Shown piece after piece: positions 30,071 through 47,414 of a DNA stretch of 64,000 nt (position 1 is the first letter of the stretch; each line of letters starts with the position of its first letter). Under the pieces are notes generated by a model. The model made no database searches. It was not told where the DNA came from and saw nothing but the letters and a program-made list of their open reading frames with translations. Position numbers and translations under genes: made by a program. Origin of the DNA: Phycisphaerae bacterium (GTDB lineage: Bacteria > Planctomycetota > Phycisphaerae > Phycisphaerales > SM1A02); NCBI GenBank assembly GCA_016795065.1, contig JAEUIU010000086.1, positions 62,001-126,000 on the forward strand, read 5' to 3'.

Positions 30071-32164
30071 ATGCTCGCCTCCTCGTTCTCTCGCCAGTCG
30101 CTCGCCCGCACCGTGCTCGCCGGCATCGCCGCGGTTGGCGTCACCCTCTGCGCCTCAGCTTCCGCAGATGCCGCAGGCACCCTCACGCCGGTTCACTCGC
30201 CCGACCAGCCGATTGCGATTCGCAGCCACAACGTCAAGGTGACCATCAACAACGGCTTCGCCCGTACCGAGGTCGAACAGGTCTTCTTCAATCCCAACGC
30301 GACGAGGATGGAAGCCATCTACGCCTTCCCCGTGCCCAAGAGCGCGAGCCTCTCGGAGATGAGCATCCTCTCCGGTGAGATCGAACTGTTAGGCGAGGTC
30401 GTCGCCAAACCAGAGGCCGAGCGGATCTTCGCCGAGGAGAAGGCACAGGGCAACGACGCGGGCATGGCCCGGAAGGAGAGCTTCCAAACCTTCGAGTTCC
30501 TGGTGGCGAACGTGCTTCCATCAGCCGAGACGCGCATGCGCTTCGTCTACTACCAGCCGCTGGAGATCGACACCGGCGTCGGTCGCTATGTCTATCCGCT
30601 CGAGGACGGCGGCACGGACGAGAAGGCCCAGGGATTCTGGAGCCGCAACGAGAAGGTCGACGGCCAAGTCTCGATCGATGTCGACGTGCGTACCGCGCTG
30701 CCGATCGAGGAGCTTCGAACCCCGGGCTTCGAGACTGTCGCCACGATCGATCGCGTCGCCGAGGACCACCATCGGCTGCACCTCGATGCCACCGGCGCTT
30801 CCCTGAACCGCGATTTCGTCCTCTATTACCGACTTCCGACGAACCTCCCGGGCCGCGTCGAGGTGCTGTCGTATCGCCCTGACGCCACGAAGCCCGGCAC
30901 CTTCATGGCGGTGGTCACTCCCGGCATTGACCTGCAACCGATCACGACCGGCGCCGACTGGTGCTTCGTGCTCGACGTCTCCGGCAGCATGCAGGGGAAG
31001 ATCCGCACGCTTGCCGACGGCGTCTCCGGCGCACTGGGCCAACTGAACGCCCAAGACCGCTTCCGCGTCATCACCTTCAACGACGCGGCCCGCGAGATTG
31101 TTCCGGTCCAAGCGGCAACACCGGAGAACGTGAAGGCGGCGATCGAACGGGTGCGCGGCCTTGCCACTAGTGGTGCAACCAACCTCTACGGCGGCGTCCA
31201 ACTGTCCCTCAACAGGCTTGACGCCGACCGGGCGACGAGCGTCATTCTGGTCACCGACGGCGTCACGAACACCGGCGTCGTCGAACCTCGTGCGTTCCAC
31301 ACGATGCTGGGCACCTGTGACATCCGCTTCTTCGGCTTCCTGATGGGCAACGGCGCGAACTGGCCGCTCATGCGGACAATCTGCGATGCAAGCGGCGGCT
31401 TCTACGCTGGCGTCTCCAATGAGGATGACATCATTGGGCAGATCCTCCTGGCCAAGAGCAAGGTCACTCACGAGTGCCTGCACGATGCCAGCCTCACGAT
31501 CAGCGGCGTGCCGACGCACGACTGCACCGATGAGTTGCTCGGCAAGGTCTATCGAGGCCAACAGGTGGTCTTCTTCGGCAAGTACGACCAGGCCGGCGAG
31601 GCGACGCTGACGCTGAAGGCCAACCTCACCGGCGAAGACAAGACCTACACGACGCGATGTGCCTTCCCCGAGGTCTCAACGGAGTACCCCGAGCTCGAGC
31701 GGCTCGCGGCCCTTCAGCGGATCGAGGAACTCGAAGTGAAGGAACTCGCCGGCCTGATGGACCCGGAAGAGTCGAAGGCGACAATCGCCCAGTTGGGGAT
31801 CGACTATCAGCTGGTCACCGATCACACCTCGATGATCGTCCTCATCGACGAGGCCCACCAGCGCCACGGAATCACGCGGTCGAACCGCGATCGAGTCGAG
31901 CGGGAACGGACTGCCCAAACCCAGCGTGCAGCGCAGCCGGTGGTCAACCATCGCGTGGATGCCGCGCAGCCGATGTTCAACCAACCCGCGCCGACGGTGA
32001 GCGGCCCGAGCTCATCCGGAACCAAGTCGGGTGGAGGCGGTGGTGGCGGTGCCCTTGACCCGTTGAGCGCTCTCCTGGCCTTGGGGGTCGGTGCCGTGGT
32101 CGCAGCGACCGCCCGACGCCGTCGCAACAGCCAAACGGCATCGGCCGCGGGCGGCGGTCTGTGA
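30071..32164 (+). CDS. VIT and von Willebrand A domain surface protein with GlyGly-CTERM-like tail
   Basis: 697-residue exported protein. Signal peptide residues 1-36 (cut near ASADA). A VIT domain follows (about 45-170: NVKVTINNGFARTEVEQVFFNP, AIYAFPVPKSASLSEM), as in inter-alpha-trypsin inhibitor heavy chains. The vWA domain starts near 295 with the MIDAS motif DVSGSM (Asp302), plus TSGATNLYGG and VTDGVTNTG, so it should bind a divalent metal and a protein partner. The C-terminus has a seven-Gly run, a hydrophobic helix (LSALLALGVGAVVAATA) and RRRR, a GlyGly-CTERM-like sorting signal. The stop overlaps the start of a rhomboid protease gene, its likely processing enzyme. Confidence 0.92.
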   Translation: MLASSFSRQSLARTVLAGIAAVGVTLCASASADAAGTLTPVHSPDQPIAIRSHNVKVTINNGFARTEVEQVFFNPNATRMEAIYAFPVPKSASLSEMSILSGEIELLGEVVAKPEAERIFAEEKAQGNDAGMARKESFQTFEFLVANVLPSAETRMRFVYYQPLEIDTGVGRYVYPLEDGGTDEKAQGFWSRNEKVDGQVSIDVDVRTALPIEELRTPGFETVATIDRVAEDHHRLHLDATGASLNRDFVLYYRLPTNLPGRVEVLSYRPDATKPGTFMAVVTPGIDLQPITTGADWCFVLDVSGSMQGKIRTLADGVSGALGQLNAQDRFRVITFNDAAREIVPVQAATPENVKAAIERVRGLATSGATNLYGGVQLSLNRLDADRATSVILVTDGVTNTGVVEPRAFHTMLGTCDIRFFGFLMGNGANWPLMRTICDASGGFYAGVSNEDDIIGQILLAKSKVTHECLHDASLTISGVPTHDCTDELLGKVYRGQQVVFFGKYDQAGEATLTLKANLTGEDKTYTTRCAFPEVSTEYPELERLAALQRIEELEVKELAGLMDPEESKATIAQLGIDYQLVTDHTSMIVLIDEAHQRHGITRSNRDRVERERTAQTQRAAQPVVNHRVDAAQPMFNQPAPTVSGPSSSGTKSGGGGGGGALDPLSALLALGVGAVVAATARRRRNSQTASAAGGGL

Positions 32165-32820
32165 GCGCCTCGCTCACCCATTCGTCGAGCCGGGCGGGCG
32201 AACGCTTGAACGCGTCCGCTTTACCGAGCTCGGAGGGGGCGAGGTCCTGGCCATGGATCTCGCTCCTTCTGACCGGAGTGGTCTTGGCGATCGCACTCCT
32301 TGGTTTGGAAGAGGCCACCGAGTTTCGGCGAAGCGCGACCCGGGAGGGCGAACTCTGGCGTCTCCTTACCTCGCACTTCAGCCACTTCGGCTGGAACCAC
32401 CTGGTGTGGGATCTTGCGGTGTTCGGGGTGCTCGGGGCTGTCGTCGAACGGACGAATCGAAGAACGTTCCTGCACGTCCTTCTGTGGCCGGCGATCCTCA
32501 TTCCGCTTGCAGTGGGCTTGGGTGAACCAAGCATCACCCACTACCGGGGGCTTTCAGGTCTGGACTCAGCGCTGGCGGCATTCCTCGGCATGACCCTCGT
32601 CGCCGACCGCACGGTCTCACCCACACTCCGCACCATCGCGTTCCTGTCGCTTGGGGGGCTGGCTGTCAAGATCCTCGTCGAATGGACGAGTGGCTCGACG
32701 ATCTTCGTTGACCACGTCGCTGCGGGGTTCCATCCCGTGCCGATCGCACACCTCGTTGGCGGAGCGGTCGGCGCCGGAGTCGCCGTCGTTGCCTGGTCGC
32801 AACGGCGACCTTCAGCATGA
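32161..32820 (+). CDS. Rhombosortase-like rhomboid serine protease
   Basis: 219-residue membrane protease with about six transmembrane segments. Catalytic Ser132 lies in HYRGLSGLDSALAAF and catalytic His197 in PIAHLVGGAVGAG; the HFSHFGWNHLVWDL block is the usual rhomboid helix-2 region. Size and motifs fit rhombosortases, the small rhomboids thought to cleave GlyGly-CTERM proteins at the outer face of the inner membrane. The upstream gene, overlapped by 4 nt (GTGA), encodes just such a substrate. Start GTG 32161 is fixed by this overlap. Confidence 0.85.
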   Translation: MSASLTHSSSRAGERLNASALPSSEGARSWPWISLLLTGVVLAIALLGLEEATEFRRSATREGELWRLLTSHFSHFGWNHLVWDLAVFGVLGAVVERTNRRTFLHVLLWPAILIPLAVGLGEPSITHYRGLSGLDSALAAFLGMTLVADRTVSPTLRTIAFLSLGGLAVKILVEWTSGSTIFVDHVAAGFHPVPIAHLVGGAVGAGVAVVAWSQRRPSA

Positions 32821-36604: not shown

Positions 36605-37375
36605 ATGGTTGCCGCAAAGAGACTTTCTGTACTGTCAGGATGTGGCTGCGCGTTCATCGCGCTTGCTTCAGGGTCGGCTCACGCCGATACATCCGTTATT
36701 CCTGACCTGATGATGCGTATCGGCGTCGCAGGTCAAACCTACGAATACAACGCGGCAACAACGGGGAACGCGTGGTCGAACGGCAATAGCACGTTCGGCT
36801 ACAACGGTACCGTTACCAGCCCGTTCGACGACACTGGTTTCAACTTGAGCTGGGGCCTTCTGGTGAATCCAGACCCGTTCATTGTTGGCAACCTGGTCGT
36901 CACCAACACGAGCAACTCGACGCAGACGTTCTTCTTGGACGTCTCGCTGCCGATCAATGTTGCGTTGGCTAGCAGCCTCATCGGCGGCTCGATCACCGGA
37001 ACGGTGACCGACCTCAACGGTGATGGTGCAACGGTCTCGGCGATTGGTGCCAACGACGCGATCTATCGCGCGTTCACCGATGTTGCTCCGGACTTCTCGA
37101 CGGGAGATCTGGCGGGGTCACTCCTCGTCGGCTCGTCGGCGTCCGCAGGCGCGTTCCTTAGCCAGACGATCGGACCGGACACCTTTGGTGGCCCGATCCC
37201 GTCGCAGCCGTACGGCGCTGTGACGACGAACATCGCGATTCGACTCCAGTTCACCCTCACTGCGGGTGACTCGGCGTCCTTCACGAGCCTGTTCGTCGTG
37301 GTGCCGGCTCCGGGTGCGCTCGCGGTGGCTGGCTTCGGCCTGCTCGCCGGTCGTCGTCGTCGTCGTTCGGCCTAA
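36605..37375 (+). CDS. Exported PEP-CTERM-like protein 1
   Basis: 256-residue exported protein of unknown function. A signal peptide (KRLSVLSGCGCAFIALASGSAHA) is followed by a beta-rich, Thr/Ser/Asn-rich domain with few charged residues. The C-terminus, VPAPGALAVAGFGLLAGRRRRR, is the planctomycete variant of the PEP-CTERM sorting signal: PAPG, one membrane helix and an Arg run. Such tails are thought to be processed by an exosortase. A second protein of the same architecture is encoded 216 nt downstream (37592-38323), and both share a block like ADTFGGPIPS/ADSFGSPIPS and SASFTSLFV/SASFTSVFV, so they arose by duplication. No exosortase gene is in the window. Confidence 0.85.
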   Translation: MVAAKRLSVLSGCGCAFIALASGSAHADTSVIPDLMMRIGVAGQTYEYNAATTGNAWSNGNSTFGYNGTVTSPFDDTGFNLSWGLLVNPDPFIVGNLVVTNTSNSTQTFFLDVSLPINVALASSLIGGSITGTVTDLNGDGATVSAIGANDAIYRAFTDVAPDFSTGDLAGSLLVGSSASAGAFLSQTIGPDTFGGPIPSQPYGAVTTNIAIRLQFTLTAGDSASFTSLFVVVPAPGALAVAGFGLLAGRRRRRSA

Positions 37376-37439: not shown

Positions 37440-37591
37440 TCTTCCACACGACTCGCGGCATTCGCTCTTGGTGAGCGGTCCGCACGTGACAAGATCAGCG
37501 GTTCGGCTCTCGGGAAAAGGGTCGGTCCGAAATCAAGCGCCGGTCAGTGTTCGCTGATCGGCGTTCAGAAGGATTGAGGGAGGGAACTCAC

Positions 37592-38323
37592 ATGCTCCGT
37601 AATCGTCTTCGCGGATTCATCGCTACTGCGGCGTGCGCTCTTGCCGCTGGCGCGACCATGACCGCAACGGCTGACGGCCCCACGGTGACGCTTGGCATCA
37701 CCGCTGATGGCAACAATCAGTCGCAGGATCTCATCGGCAGTTCGACTGCCACCCCCGACGTCTTTAACTACCAAGGCTCCGTCGTCGACGGCTCTGGTGC
37801 TTGGACGCTGGGTTGGAACTTCAACGCGTCGAACAACCAGGGTGGCAACAAGGCGTTTACCGCCGGCAACTACGTGATCCAGAATCTCTCTGATCACGCC
37901 ATCCAGTTCGATCTCACCGTGTCGCTTCCGGTTGCCCTCTTGGGCAGCACGGTTTACGGCGGCTCGGTGAGTGGTGGTCTCACCACGACCGCTGCGGGCT
38001 TCATTTCGAGCCTGCAGATCCCGCTTTGGACCGGTGCGACTGGGGGCTCGACGATCAGCACCCTGTTCAACAACCCGTTTGACGTGACCCGCACCGAAGC
38101 CGGTAGCTCCTCGCTCGGCGCCGACTCCTTCGGCAGCCCGATTCCGAGCCTCCCTGGCCCGGATCTCGGAAGCGATCTGCGGATCACCTTCTCGTTCCTC
38201 CTCGGTGCGAACTCCTCGGCTTCGTTCACGAGCGTGTTCGTTGCCCAGGTTCCGGCCCCAGGCGCGGCTGCCCTCCTCGGTCTCGCTGGCCTCGCTGCCT
38301 GCGGTCGCCGTCGTCGGGCTTGA
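37592..38323 (+). CDS. Exported PEP-CTERM-like protein 2
   Basis: 243-residue paralogue of the preceding protein. Signal peptide RGFIATAACALAAGATMTATA; beta-rich body with NYVIQNLSDHAIQFDLTVSLPVALLGSTVYGGS (split near residues 85-120), aligned with NLVVTNTSNSTQTFFLDVSLPI in protein 1; sorting tail VPAPGAAALLGLAGLAACGRRRR. Start ATG 37592 has GAGGGAGGGAA 6-8 nt before it; the frame is open 15 codons earlier but without a signal peptide. Its own terminator follows at 38458, so it forms a separate transcription unit. Confidence 0.85.
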   Translation: MLRNRLRGFIATAACALAAGATMTATADGPTVTLGITADGNNQSQDLIGSSTATPDVFNYQGSVVDGSGAWTLGWNFNASNNQGGNKAFTAGNYVIQNLSDHAIQFDLTVSLPVALLGSTVYGGSVSGGLTTTAAGFISSLQIPLWTGATGGSTISTLFNNPFDVTRTEAGSSSLGADSFGSPIPSLPGPDLGSDLRITFSFLLGANSSASFTSVFVAQVPAPGAAALLGLAGLAACGRRRRA

Positions 38324-43693: not shown

Positions 43694-46684
43694 TTATTGG
43701 GTGATCACGCCGCCGCCAAGCTGGTCACGAAGGCCCGGATAGAGCGTGTCTTCGTCTTCCTGCTGGATGATGACTTCCGGTCGGATAAGGAGGAGCGTTG
43801 TGAGCTCGACCTTGCTCGTCACGCGGTTGGTGAAGAACCGGTTGACGATCGGAATCTTCGAGAGCACCGGCACGCCGGTCTCGACCTCGAATTCGCGGAG
43901 CTTGCGCTGTCCGCCGAGGAGGATCGTTCCCTTGTCCGGCACCGAGACGGTGGTGGCGATTTCAGTACCTTCGAGTTCGGGGAGCTGGAAGGTCGCCTCG
44001 AAGGTGCTTGAGCCACGGCCGACAAGGTCACCTGCACCGGCGGCACCGCTGAAGGTGACGTCGCGGAACTTCACGTTCTCGTTCAGGCCGAATTGGACGG
44101 TCATCGTCACGTAACGGCGATCGGCCGAGATGACCGCTTCGACGTCAAGCACGAAGCCCTCGTACACCACGCCGACGGTCGGCTGGAAGGCGCCGGAGGA
44201 GTCGCCAGTGATCGGCGTCAGGCCAGAGATGAAGCTGACGGCCTTGGCCACCGACACCCATGAACGCTGCCCGTTGAAGAGGGTGACGCGCGGAGCGGTC
44301 AGGACGACGTTGCGCTGGTCGGCCTGGGTTGCCTTGATGATCAGGTCGACCTGGATGTCATCGAGGTAGCTGATGCCGATGTTGAGGGCCGGCGTGCCGA
44401 GGGCGGCGGCGCCAACCGGGCCGACGGCCGCGGTCGCGAGGGCGTCGGTGAGATCAAGCGACGACTGCGAGACGCCGATCGGGGCCCAGCCGCTCTGACG
44501 AGCGATCGGAACGCCAACCGGAGCGGTGACGTACTGGATCGCGGTCGGATCGTTCGGGTCCACCTGACCGAACTGGGCGCCAGTCGCGACCGTGTTCGCG
44601 AAGGGGTTGTTGAAGCCGCCGTCATCGCCGGTCGGGAAGGAGTCGAACACCAGCGGCTTCTTGAGGTCGCCGTTGTTGAACGCGCTGCCCGAGGGCTGGT
44701 TGTTGTAGAAGAAGTCACTGAGCTGGAAGTTCGGATCAACCGCCTTCGCAGCGCTGTACATGTTGTTGTTGGTGTTGAAATACAGATCGAGGTCGATGCC
44801 GATCTGCTCAAACCACTCGAGGGAGACGTTGATGAGTCTGCTCTCGATGTTGATCTGCAGCGCTCGAATCGTGCGGAGCTGGGTGAGCAGTCCCTCGATC
44901 TCGGCGTGATTGCGGGGCGTGTTCGTGATGATGAGATTGCCGTTGAGCTCCTGAAGCGCGGCACCGCCGTCACCTTCGAGCCAGCCGTTCGGGTCAACCT
45001 GCTCCTGGATGATGGTGACGATCTGGTCGATCATCTCCTGACGGTCGCGCCGCTCGGGATCCTCACCTTCGTCGCCGAAGATGTTCCCGCCGCCGCCACC
45101 GCCACCGCCGCCGTTGCCGCCACCACCACCGCCGCCGAAGCCGCCACCACCACCGCCGCCACCGAATCCGCCGCCGCCACCGCCGCCGCCTTGGCCGCCG
45201 CCACCCTGACCACCCTGGTTGGCCTGCTGGATCGACTGGCTGAGGTTGAACTCAGGGGCGTTGTCAAACATCGGGACGTCGAACAGGAGGTCCCGAATGT
45301 CGTACACGACCGTGATGGTCTTCTTGCGGAGGGCCGCATCGGAAGAAACGACGACGACGCCGTCCTCAATCGCCACGAGCGGGCGCGATTCCTCATCGGA
45401 ACCAAGCTGCTCCAGAATGCGGTTGAGGGCAACTTCAGCCGGAACGTCCTTCAGGTCGAGGGAGATCGTGTCCTCGGCCGAAACGTCGAGTTCCTCGAGC
45501 GCCTTCCAATCGGCGTAGAAGTCGAGTCCAGTGACCGACTTCATGTAGTTGATCACCTGATCGAACTGGTTGTTCGAGAAGTTGACGCTGACGACCTTCT
45601 GAAGGTCGAACCGGGTCTGCTGGTCGCGCTCGCTCTCGCGGTAGCCGGCGGCTGCGCCGCGCTGGATCGAGAGCTGGGGCCAGTCTTCCGGATACTCAAG
45701 GAGACCGGTGACCGACCGCGGGCCGGAGCCGCTAACGTTCGGACGCGGCGGGACCATGCCCTCGAGGGCCTTGTGCGACTCGGCGGCGTAGGCCTCCCAG
45801 CGGCGCTTCTCGACATCGCTGTACTTGCGGTACATCTGGCTGGACGTGATGACGTCCTTGAGCGCGAGAGCGGCAGGGTTGTGCGGATCAATGAAGAGGA
45901 TCTCGTCGAGAACCTGGATGGCCTCGGTGTACTTGAGCTCCATCTGAAGCTGCCGGACGCGCTTGAGGCTCTCGTTGATGGAGTTTTCGCGGTTCCGGGC
46001 CTCCGCGGCCTTTGCATCCTCGGCGGCCTTCTTGGCGTCATCGCGGGCCTTGGCGGTCTTGTTGAGGTCGCTCAGCGTGCGCTTCTGCGAGACCTCTTCG
46101 GTCATCGTGACGAGCTCGGCCTTCATCGTGGCGTATTCGCCGGCCGGAAGGATGCCCTTGTCGTTGTCGAGCTGAACGCCAGCGGTCAGGAGCTCGCGCT
46201 CAGCCAGCCGGAAGTTCTCTTGGGTCAGGTAGTCCTGAGCCCGCTGCTTTGCAGCCGCAAACTTTTTCACCGCTCGCTCGCGGCGAATGGAAATGTCCTC
46301 GGTCACGCTTGCGTTGGTGCTGGGCGTGTCGAGGGCGGTGCGGGCCTGAGCGATGGCGGTCATCGCTTCCGCGTCACCGGGATTGGCGTTCAAGATCGCC
46401 GTCCAGAGGTCGATCGCCCGTTGCCACTGGCTGCTGTTCATCGCTTCACGGGCCGCATCACGATCGGCATCCTGCGAGCGGGCAGCAGCGGAGGCCGAGC
46501 GGGGACCCACGCTGGCGTCCAGCTCCGCAACGAGATCACCGAACCCCTCGAGTCCTGCGACGAATTGAGTGAGCGAGGCAACCGGCAAACCGCCGATCGT
46601 GGTGGCCATCACGAACACCGAAAGAGCGTTCGAACGGCGGACCGGAAGAGTGCAACTCGCAGGGGACTCGAACGACCGATTCAT
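43694..46684 (-). CDS. Secretin (type II/III secretion or type IV pilus outer-membrane channel) with poly-Gly insert
   Basis: 996-residue protein. An N-terminal signal segment (NALSVFVMATTIGGLPVASL) is followed by a helical TPR-like region to about residue 330, then two small N-domains (VNFSNNQFDQVINYMKSVTGLDFYADW; ITNTPRNHAEIEGLLTQLRTI). A Gly-only tract of about 40 residues (about 493-533) separates them. The C-terminal secretin barrel has VISADRRYVTMTVQ, DKGTILLGGQRK and VPVLSKIPIVNRFF. Start ATG 46684 has CGGAG 6 nt before it. No other secretion genes are adjacent; such lone, TPR-bearing secretins are typical of planctomycetes, so its transport partner system is unknown. Confidence 0.92.
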   Translation of the reverse strand: MNRSFESPASCTLPVRRSNALSVFVMATTIGGLPVASLTQFVAGLEGFGDLVAELDASVGPRSASAAARSQDADRDAAREAMNSSQWQRAIDLWTAILNANPGDAEAMTAIAQARTALDTPSTNASVTEDISIRRERAVKKFAAAKQRAQDYLTQENFRLAERELLTAGVQLDNDKGILPAGEYATMKAELVTMTEEVSQKRTLSDLNKTAKARDDAKKAAEDAKAAEARNRENSINESLKRVRQLQMELKYTEAIQVLDEILFIDPHNPAALALKDVITSSQMYRKYSDVEKRRWEAYAAESHKALEGMVPPRPNVSGSGPRSVTGLLEYPEDWPQLSIQRGAAAGYRESERDQQTRFDLQKVVSVNFSNNQFDQVINYMKSVTGLDFYADWKALEELDVSAEDTISLDLKDVPAEVALNRILEQLGSDEESRPLVAIEDGVVVVSSDAALRKKTITVVYDIRDLLFDVPMFDNAPEFNLSQSIQQANQGGQGGGGQGGGGGGGGFGGGGGGGGFGGGGGGGNGGGGGGGGGNIFGDEGEDPERRDRQEMIDQIVTIIQEQVDPNGWLEGDGGAALQELNGNLIITNTPRNHAEIEGLLTQLRTIRALQINIESRLINVSLEWFEQIGIDLDLYFNTNNNMYSAAKAVDPNFQLSDFFYNNQPSGSAFNNGDLKKPLVFDSFPTGDDGGFNNPFANTVATGAQFGQVDPNDPTAIQYVTAPVGVPIARQSGWAPIGVSQSSLDLTDALATAAVGPVGAAALGTPALNIGISYLDDIQVDLIIKATQADQRNVVLTAPRVTLFNGQRSWVSVAKAVSFISGLTPITGDSSGAFQPTVGVVYEGFVLDVEAVISADRRYVTMTVQFGLNENVKFRDVTFSGAAGAGDLVGRGSSTFEATFQLPELEGTEIATTVSVPDKGTILLGGQRKLREFEVETGVPVLSKIPIVNRFFTNRVTSKVELTTLLLIRPEVIIQQEDEDTLYPGLRDQLGGGVITQ

Positions 46685-47414
46685 GCGGGACTCCGATTGG
46701 CTTTCGCGTGGAGGACGGTACCTCACGAAATCGTGGGGTACGTCATGTGTGTGGGGACGCAGTCGTTGCCGCGGACATCTGCTTGGAAGGCCAACCGGAT
46801 GGGCCGTGCGAATCGCGGCCCCGCCAATCGACCTGTCCTTCAGCCTTGCAAGGGGGCAGGATCTGAACATGTCGTGCAACACACGGCATGCGGAATCCCA
46901 ATATCCCCAGACGCGGGGCTGACATCCGTGGAACTCGCCTGCGCAGTTCCAGTGATTCCGTGGGGTTGCAGCTGTTGAGGAGATTCGCGCACAGTGGCGA
47001 CCGCCTCAAACGCTGCCTCCAACACGGGCGGGCAGACTACTTCGATGCTGGGGCATTCGCAAGCCTGCATGCCGTGACTTCTTGCGAGCAACGTCTTTTG
47101 GCACAAGAAGTTCGATGGACTCATGCCGACCGCGCGTGAGCCCGACTCAAAGGCCTTCCCGACATCGCACATTGCACGGGGAAACGCGTGATTGTGATGC
47201 GTTGCGGGCGCTCCCGCGTGAGCACTGCGAAGCGCGGTGGAGCAACCTGGAGATCACTCGGTGCCGCTTGACTCAGGCAATCGCCCCGCCTTCTGTCTCG
47301 ACGGCGCAGCACATGACCTGCGAGTGGTGCTTTCATCGCGCGACCCCGACGGAGGGGGACCCATCGGCGCGAGGCTCACATGGTCGGTTCGACGCGCTGG
47401 GCATCAGGAACCGG
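46685..47414. other. 730-bp region without a recognised gene
   Basis: Between the start of the secretin gene and the end of carA. Open frames of up to 130 codons exist on both strands, but none has a recognisable motif or a convincing start. I found no tRNA or other RNA gene. Apart from the inverted repeat at 46718-46741, I see nothing. Confidence 0.6.
46718..46741 (-). promoter_or_regulatory. Inverted repeat in the secretin leader
   Basis: Arms GTACCTCACGA (46718-46728) and TCGTGGGGTAC (46731-46741), 10 of 11 pairs, only 2 nt apart, centred 45 nt upstream of the secretin ATG. Such a closely spaced palindrome is more like an operator than an RNA hairpin. The binding protein is unknown. Confidence 0.4.

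What the first reader, a model, noticed from the sequence alone, without database searches (positions are those of the whole stretch)
30071..32820. VIT-vWA protein with a GlyGly-CTERM-like tail overlaps its likely rhombosortase
The 697-residue protein ends in a Gly run, a hydrophobic helix and RRRR, and its gene overlaps by 4 bp a 219-residue rhomboid with Ser132 and His197. In marine Proteobacteria, a VIT-vWA protein with LPXTG is paired in the same way with a dedicated sortase. Here an unrelated enzyme class seems to serve the same kind of target, suggesting convergent evolution of one-substrate sorting modules. The tail has 12 extra residues after the Arg run, unlike typical signals.
Basis: partly seen in the sequence, partly recalled or inferred. 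Interest (0 to 1): 0.7.

Follow-up and report, generated by a model that had tools for sequence, protein, structure and literature searches.

The report
Surface protein with its own rhombosortase
A planctomycete surface protein (VIT-vWA) ends in a short sorting tag and is encoded directly before the membrane protease that almost certainly trims that tag; this one-enzyme, one-target pair recurs across Planctomycetota and Verrucomicrobiota, and it is a distinctive branch of an already described system.

Summary
The 219-aa protein passes NCBI's rhombosortase model (TIGR03902, 103.2 bits, cut-off 84); GlpG models score far below cut-off. The VIT-vWA gene overlaps it by 4 bp and carries a Gly-run + GA[IL]DP + hydrophobic + Arg tail.

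In 151 genomes of the order, the 11 with an over-cut-off rhombosortase are the same 11 that carry this tail, once each; in 10 a VIT gene is adjacent or one gene away. In a phylum-wide sample 21 of 24 assessable rhombosortases sit beside a VIT-vWA gene. Unpaired VIT paralogues lack the tail.

Three refinements. (1) Haft & Varghese 2011 already reported dedicated adjacent pairs and VIT-vWA proteins with GlyGly-CTERM, PEP-CTERM or LPXTG tails, so the convergence idea is not new. (2) The branch is a variant: tails fail the GlyGly-CTERM model, and the residue four after the catalytic Ser is Ser/Thr/Cys, not the rhombosortase His (His in 7 of 131). (3) Tail follows enzyme: an SGxAHG enzyme clade uses GPVGP-type tails on VIT-vWA bodies that are not one clade.

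Cleavage, lipid anchoring and surface exposure are inferred from Vibrio RssP; none was tested.

The parts
30071..32164 (+). VIT-vWA protein, 697 aa: signal peptide (by eye), VIT domain (residues 50-160), vWA domain (about 298-452) with a DVSGS metal-site motif, linker, sorting tail
   Evidence: ORF and sequence; Pfam; PDB sequence relatives are inter-alpha-trypsin inhibitor heavy chains and PARP4
32027..32161 (+). C-terminal sorting tail: Gly run, GALDP motif, hydrophobic segment, RRRR, 12-residue extension
   Evidence: sequence; tail profile A3 finds it as the only strong match in the genome (E 5e-13, next 0.026); motif AIDP/ALDP/AFDP in most relatives
32161..32820 (+). dedicated rhombosortase, 219 aa, six-helix rhomboid with Ser132/His197, WRLLT (L1) and AHLVGGAVG (TM6) motifs, GLSGLDSAL around the catalytic Ser
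   Evidence: TIGR03902 103.2 bits vs cut-off 84; AlphaFold2 pLDDT 89.4, one helix starting at S132 and one just before H197; Foldseek to GlpG prob 1.00, TM-score by target about 0.7
32161..32164 (+). 4-bp overlap (GTGA) of the target stop and the enzyme start, suggesting translational coupling
   Evidence: 52 of 100 relatives have a possible enzyme start within 30 bp of the target stop, 16 of them exactly -4

Best explanation
A dedicated, two-gene surface-sorting module. The VIT-vWA protein is exported by Sec and held in the inner membrane by its C-terminal helix. The neighbouring rhombosortase cleaves at the GGGA[IL]DP motif at the periplasmic edge of that helix, discards the helix and Arg tail, and, by analogy with Vibrio cholerae RssP, the new small-residue C-terminus is joined to a phosphoethanolamine-containing lipid. 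The processed protein then crosses the outer membrane, probably by the type II secretion system, and displays its metal-binding vWA domain at the surface. Shown by sequence: enzyme family, catalytic residues, tail, strict pairing, single target, correlated change of tail and enzyme. Inferred: cleavage (about 0.9), lipid anchoring (about 0.6), surface display through T2SS (about 0.5), adhesion or matrix role (about 0.4). The confidence given is for the pairing plus cleavage and sorting, not for each later step.
For: Rhombosortase model passed and rhomboid fold with the dyad at the expected helix starts. Co-occurrence in the order: the 11 genomes with the enzyme are the same 11 with the tail, 0 of 140 others. 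Adjacency (or one gene between): 10 of 11 in the order, 21 of 24 assessable over-cut-off hits in the phylum sample, 75 of 75 assessable loci in a scan with patterns from paired enzymes. One strong tail match per genome, the neighbour. Unpaired VIT proteins, including three paralogues in this genome, have no such tail. Partnered VIT-vWA bodies form a clade apart from unpaired ones, save one row. Tail similarity tracks enzyme similarity with body similarity held constant (partial r 0.37, p 0.001). A GspD secretin passes its cut-off in this genome. RssP cleaves VesB after Gly383, accepts Ala there, and a glycerophosphoethanolamine-containing moiety is found on the product (PMC6219818, PMC11389362).
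Against: No biochemical evidence. The tails fail TIGR03501 (3 of 50 even at E<10), and the enzyme lacks the His four residues after the catalytic Ser that Haft & Varghese call near-universal in rhombosortases. In VesB, Gly two residues before the P1 residue abolishes activity (PMC11389362 Table 1, S381G), so the exact cut site cannot be transferred. T2SS was assessed only by its secretin. One genome (G121) keeps the enzyme and a tail-only 80-aa ORF without a VIT gene.
Confidence: 0.8

Rival explanations
1. Shedding rather than anchoring: the rhomboid cuts the membrane-tethered VIT-vWA protein and water resolves the acyl enzyme, releasing it into periplasm or medium.
For: Ordinary rhomboids hydrolyse; V. 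cholerae GlpG cleavage of VesB releases soluble protein (PMC11389362); this branch has Ser/Thr/Cys instead of the rhombosortase His next to the active site.
Against: Family membership at model level, and the closest studied enzyme, RssP, leaves its substrate on the surface (PMC6219818); the one-target arrangement parallels sortase cassettes.
Confidence: 0.2
2. The tail is a PEP-CTERM-like tag handled by one of the two exosortases of this genome, and the rhomboid neighbour is incidental.
For: Two exosortases are present; weak PEP-CTERM score, 12.7 bits, cut-off 16; PEP-CTERM-like proteins lie nearby.
Against: Tail and rhombosortase co-occur 11 of 11 with 0 of 140 in genomes without it; the tail has GGGALDP, not the PEP motif; strict adjacency across phyla.
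Confidence: 0.04
3. The helix is a stable membrane anchor and the rhomboid only regulates or degrades the protein.
For: No processed form has been observed; some rhomboid homologues are regulatory (established knowledge).
Against: The catalytic Ser is retained in 166 of 167 enzymes compared, and a tail motif that changes with the enzyme points to proteolytic recognition.
Confidence: 0.06

Closest known systems
GlyGly-CTERM / rhombosortase system (Haft & Varghese 2011; RssP-VesB of Vibrio cholerae)
   Same: rhomboid subfamily above the TIGR03902 cut-off; tripartite C-terminal tag; adjacent genes when a genome has one target; VIT-vWA proteins with GlyGly-CTERM already noted (PMC3237569 Fig. 3C)
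   Different: tag is G-run + GA[ILF]DP rather than SGGS and fails TIGR03501; residue four after the catalytic Ser is Ser/Thr/Cys rather than His; one VIT-vWA target per enzyme over a wide range of genomes
Marine proteobacterial sortase target TIGR03788 with class GN sortase
   Same: VIT-vWA target overlapping or adjacent to a dedicated sorting enzyme; 4-bp overlap in Novosphingobium pSA2
   Different: LPXTG tail and a cysteine transpeptidase; target bodies are a separate lineage; the window protein scores 190.7 against a cut-off of 551.65
Rhombotarget lipoprotein TIGR04179 with its adjacent rhombosortase
   Same: dedicated target directly upstream of a rhombosortase, seen here in Verrucomicrobiota (L236)
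   Different: unrelated target protein; different enzyme clade (SG[LV]A[TVA]G) and tail (GYTGGGAxDG...)
Exosortase / PEP-CTERM
   Same: tripartite C-terminal tag; a VIT-vWA protein with PEP-CTERM is known in Verrucomicrobium spinosum (PMC3237569)
   Different: unrelated enzyme; motif absent here

Membership tests
Rhombosortase (TIGR03902) | score above the curated cut-off of 84 bits | tested here: met
   103.2 bits for the protein, 104.2 in the genome search
Rhombosortase (TIGR03902) | rhomboid fold with Ser/His dyad, WRxxS/T in L1 and AHxxGxxxG in TM6 | tested here: met
   WRLLT (W66), GLSG (S132), AHLVGGAVG (H197); AlphaFold2 and Foldseek; S132, K170 and E174 invariant in A4
Rhombosortase (TIGR03902) | His four residues after the catalytic Ser ('virtually all rhombosortases', PMC3237569) | tested here: not met
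   Ser136 here; in 131 VIT-linked enzymes (some duplicates) S 82, T 26, C 12, H 7, others 4
Rhombosortase (TIGR03902) | co-occurrence with a cognate C-terminal tag | tested here: met
   11 of 11 genomes with, 0 of 140 without
Rhombosortase (TIGR03902) | cleaves the tag in vivo | not testable with these tools
   needs mutants and mass spectrometry
GlyGly-CTERM (TIGR03501) | matches the curated tail model | tested here: not met
   no match for the window protein or tail up to E 10; 3 of 50 tails at E<10; MprA_tail TIGR03867 9.3 bits, cut-off 19.7
GlyGly-CTERM (TIGR03501) | tripartite architecture: Gly motif, hydrophobic helix, basic cluster at the C-terminus, on a signal-peptide protein | tested here: met
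   sequence; tail alignment (signal peptide judged by eye)
GlpG (TIGR04239) | score above the GlpG cut-off of 250 bits | tested here: not met
   30.8 bits
Marine proteobacterial sortase target (TIGR03788) | score above 551.65 bits, LPXTG tail, adjacent sortase | tested here: not met
   190.7 bits, no LPXTG, neighbour is a rhomboid

The most novel reading that the evidence does not exclude
Rhombosortases have split into subtypes that read different tags, so that one cell can run two or more private sorting channels side by side, and a target can change channel by exchanging tag and enzyme together. In five Verrucomicrobiota genomes (G513, G560, G592, G607, G619) two enzyme clades each sit beside their own target with their own tail class, and the SGxAHG clade uses GPVGP-type tails on VIT-vWA bodies that are not one clade.
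Probability: 0.55. Interest if true: 0.65.

Novelty: new variant of a known kind. Interest (0 to 1): 0.48.

Why it matters
The module gives a family of natural one-to-one enzyme and tag pairs, with different active-site motifs, in which to learn how a rhomboid protease chooses its substrate. It also puts a likely sorting route on a widespread planctomycete and verrucomicrobial VIT-vWA protein that NCBI's models do not name, and supplies a tail profile for tags that existing GlyGly-CTERM models miss.

Tried and rejected
Alignment A1 was too diverse for a genome-contig scan; subset A2 worked. A strict rule linking Asp three after the catalytic Ser to Asp in the A[IL]DP tail was considered and dropped: exceptions in both directions. 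A single common origin of all VIT-linked enzymes was not supported. A tblastn of an LHG-type enzyme against plasmids found nothing. The Rhodopirellula baltica target of Haft's Table 3 could not be read, so whether that published pair is a VIT-vWA protein is unknown. A Stieleria VIT-vWA (L190) grouped with sortase partners at 91% support; treated as unresolved. Predicting the VIT-vWA structure was left out as not decisive.

Full report
What is there. The window (contig C29 of a 5.0 Mb genome; a sister genome of the same genus, G105, is deposited as a Phycisphaerae MAG, locus L123) encodes a 697-aa VIT-vWA protein at 30071-32164 and a 219-aa rhomboid at 32161-32820, overlapping by the four bases GTGA. 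Pfam finds VIT, VWA and Rhomboid domains well above cut-off. The rhomboid scores 103.2 bits against the rhombosortase model TIGR03902 (cut-off 84) and 30.8 against GlpG (cut-off 250). An AlphaFold2 model (pLDDT 89.4) has the rhomboid helices with Ser132 at the start of one and His197 near the start of the last, and Foldseek's 34 best matches are all GlpG.

Is the pair conserved? In 151 genomes of the order, 11 have a rhombosortase over the cut-off; 10 of them have a VIT gene beside it, with one gene between in one genus. A profile of the tails (A3, 50 sequences) hits exactly those 11 genomes and no other, once each. The eleventh, G121, keeps the enzyme and an 80-aa ORF holding only the tail. 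In a sample of 294 genomes of the phylum, 25 have an over-cut-off rhombosortase; one is cut off by a contig end, and 21 of the other 24 lie beside a VIT-vWA gene with a Gly-rich tail; G278, G327 and G354 do not. A scan of named genomes with patterns from paired enzymes gave 80 loci; all 75 with enough upstream sequence carry the VIT-vWA gene, in records labelled Planctomycetota, Verrucomicrobia and Opitutales, Kiritimatiellota, Lentisphaeria and Acidobacteria. That scan is biased towards paired enzymes; the order and phylum surveys are not. Some MAG titles in it are doubtful.

Is it one enzyme, one target? The tail profile gives one strong match per genome, the neighbour, in seven planctomycete genomes (next best E 0.001 or worse) and one in eight of nine others (one genome there has a second, weak match at 0.009). 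Other VIT proteins, three in this genome and 22 elsewhere in the phylum, end without a tail.

How it differs from the textbook system. The tails share GGGA[ILF]DP, with the Gly-Ala pair invariant in 50, and are not recognised by the GlyGly-CTERM model (3 of 50 even at E<10). Most enzymes have SG[ILV]D[STC] at the active site: the position that is Tyr in GlpG and His in nearly all rhombosortases according to Haft & Varghese (PMC3237569) is Ser, Thr or Cys in 120 of 131 VIT-linked enzymes and His in 7. The counts include a few duplicate genomes.

Trees. In the enzyme tree 110 of 119 VIT-linked enzymes fall in one group; six of mainly SGxAHG type and three with SG[MV]L[HN] motifs lie elsewhere, also beside VIT-vWA genes. 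In the tree of VIT-vWA bodies without their tails, rhombosortase partners form a clade (98) apart from unpaired paralogues and from sortase partners, with one exception (L190). Partners of the SGxAHG-clade enzymes are not one clade there (AU p 2e-7), yet their readable tails share GPV[GN]P. Across 111 pairs, tail distance follows enzyme distance with body distance held constant (partial r 0.37) more than it follows body distance with enzyme distance held constant (0.21), both p 0.001. The simplest reading is that tag and enzyme travel together and that both have been exchanged on a stable target. These are quick trees with single-branch support only.

Other dedicated modules. In 241 Verrucomicrobiota genomes, 31 over-cut-off rhombosortases in 22 genomes include 12 beside VIT-vWA genes; of the others, those examined sit beside a rhombotarget lipoprotein (TIGR04179, 297.5 bits for the L236 example) or an Ig-domain matrixin-type metalloprotease (L243 example), each with its own tail class. 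In G513, G560, G592, G607 and G619 these two kinds coexist, each with its own enzyme. For some of these enzymes no tailed neighbour was found.

Mechanism. Vibrio RssP cleaves VesB after the second Gly of SGGS, accepts Ala there, and the product carries a glycerophosphoethanolamine-containing group and reaches the surface through T2SS (PMC6219818, PMC11389362). The same steps are the best guess here. This genome has a GspD secretin over its cut-off (376 bits, cut-off 351), but the rest of a T2SS was not checked, and no cleavage has been shown.

Relation to prior work. Haft & Varghese 2011 described adjacent single-target pairs (Table 3, with Rhodopirellula baltica and Opitutus terrae) and VIT-vWA proteins carrying GlyGly-CTERM, PEP-CTERM or LPXTG tails (Fig. 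3C). What I did not find in the library searched is a description of this branch as a widespread dedicated module with its own tag and active-site motif; most subscription papers are not held, so this is weak evidence of novelty.

Noticed in passing
window 36605-37375 and 37547-38323: Two neighbouring 256- and 258-aa proteins with VPAPGA...RRRR tails; weak PEP-CTERM and borderline MYXO-CTERM scores (one at 20.5 bits, cut-off 20) in a genome with two exosortases. One exosortase lies on the same contig, about 12 kb beyond the window's end.
   Followed up: partly
window 43697-47005 (-): 1103-aa open frame with a secretin domain that is below every named secretin cut-off (MshL 90.2 of 250; GspD 62.8 of 351), beside carbamoyl-phosphate synthase.
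   Followed up: no
L044 (G121), about 1 kb upstream of the rhombosortase: An 80-aa ORF holds only the Gly-TM-Arg tail while the VIT-vWA body is missing; looks like a decayed module that kept the enzyme and tag.
   Followed up: partly
L226 (G498): Two rhombosortases close together on one strand, with a 425-aa and an 854-aa ORF upstream or around them that share the GGGGAPSxWFxGALGLL tail.
   Followed up: no
L038, L042, L043: In one genus a gene of about 200 aa sits between the VIT-vWA gene and the rhombosortase.
   Followed up: no
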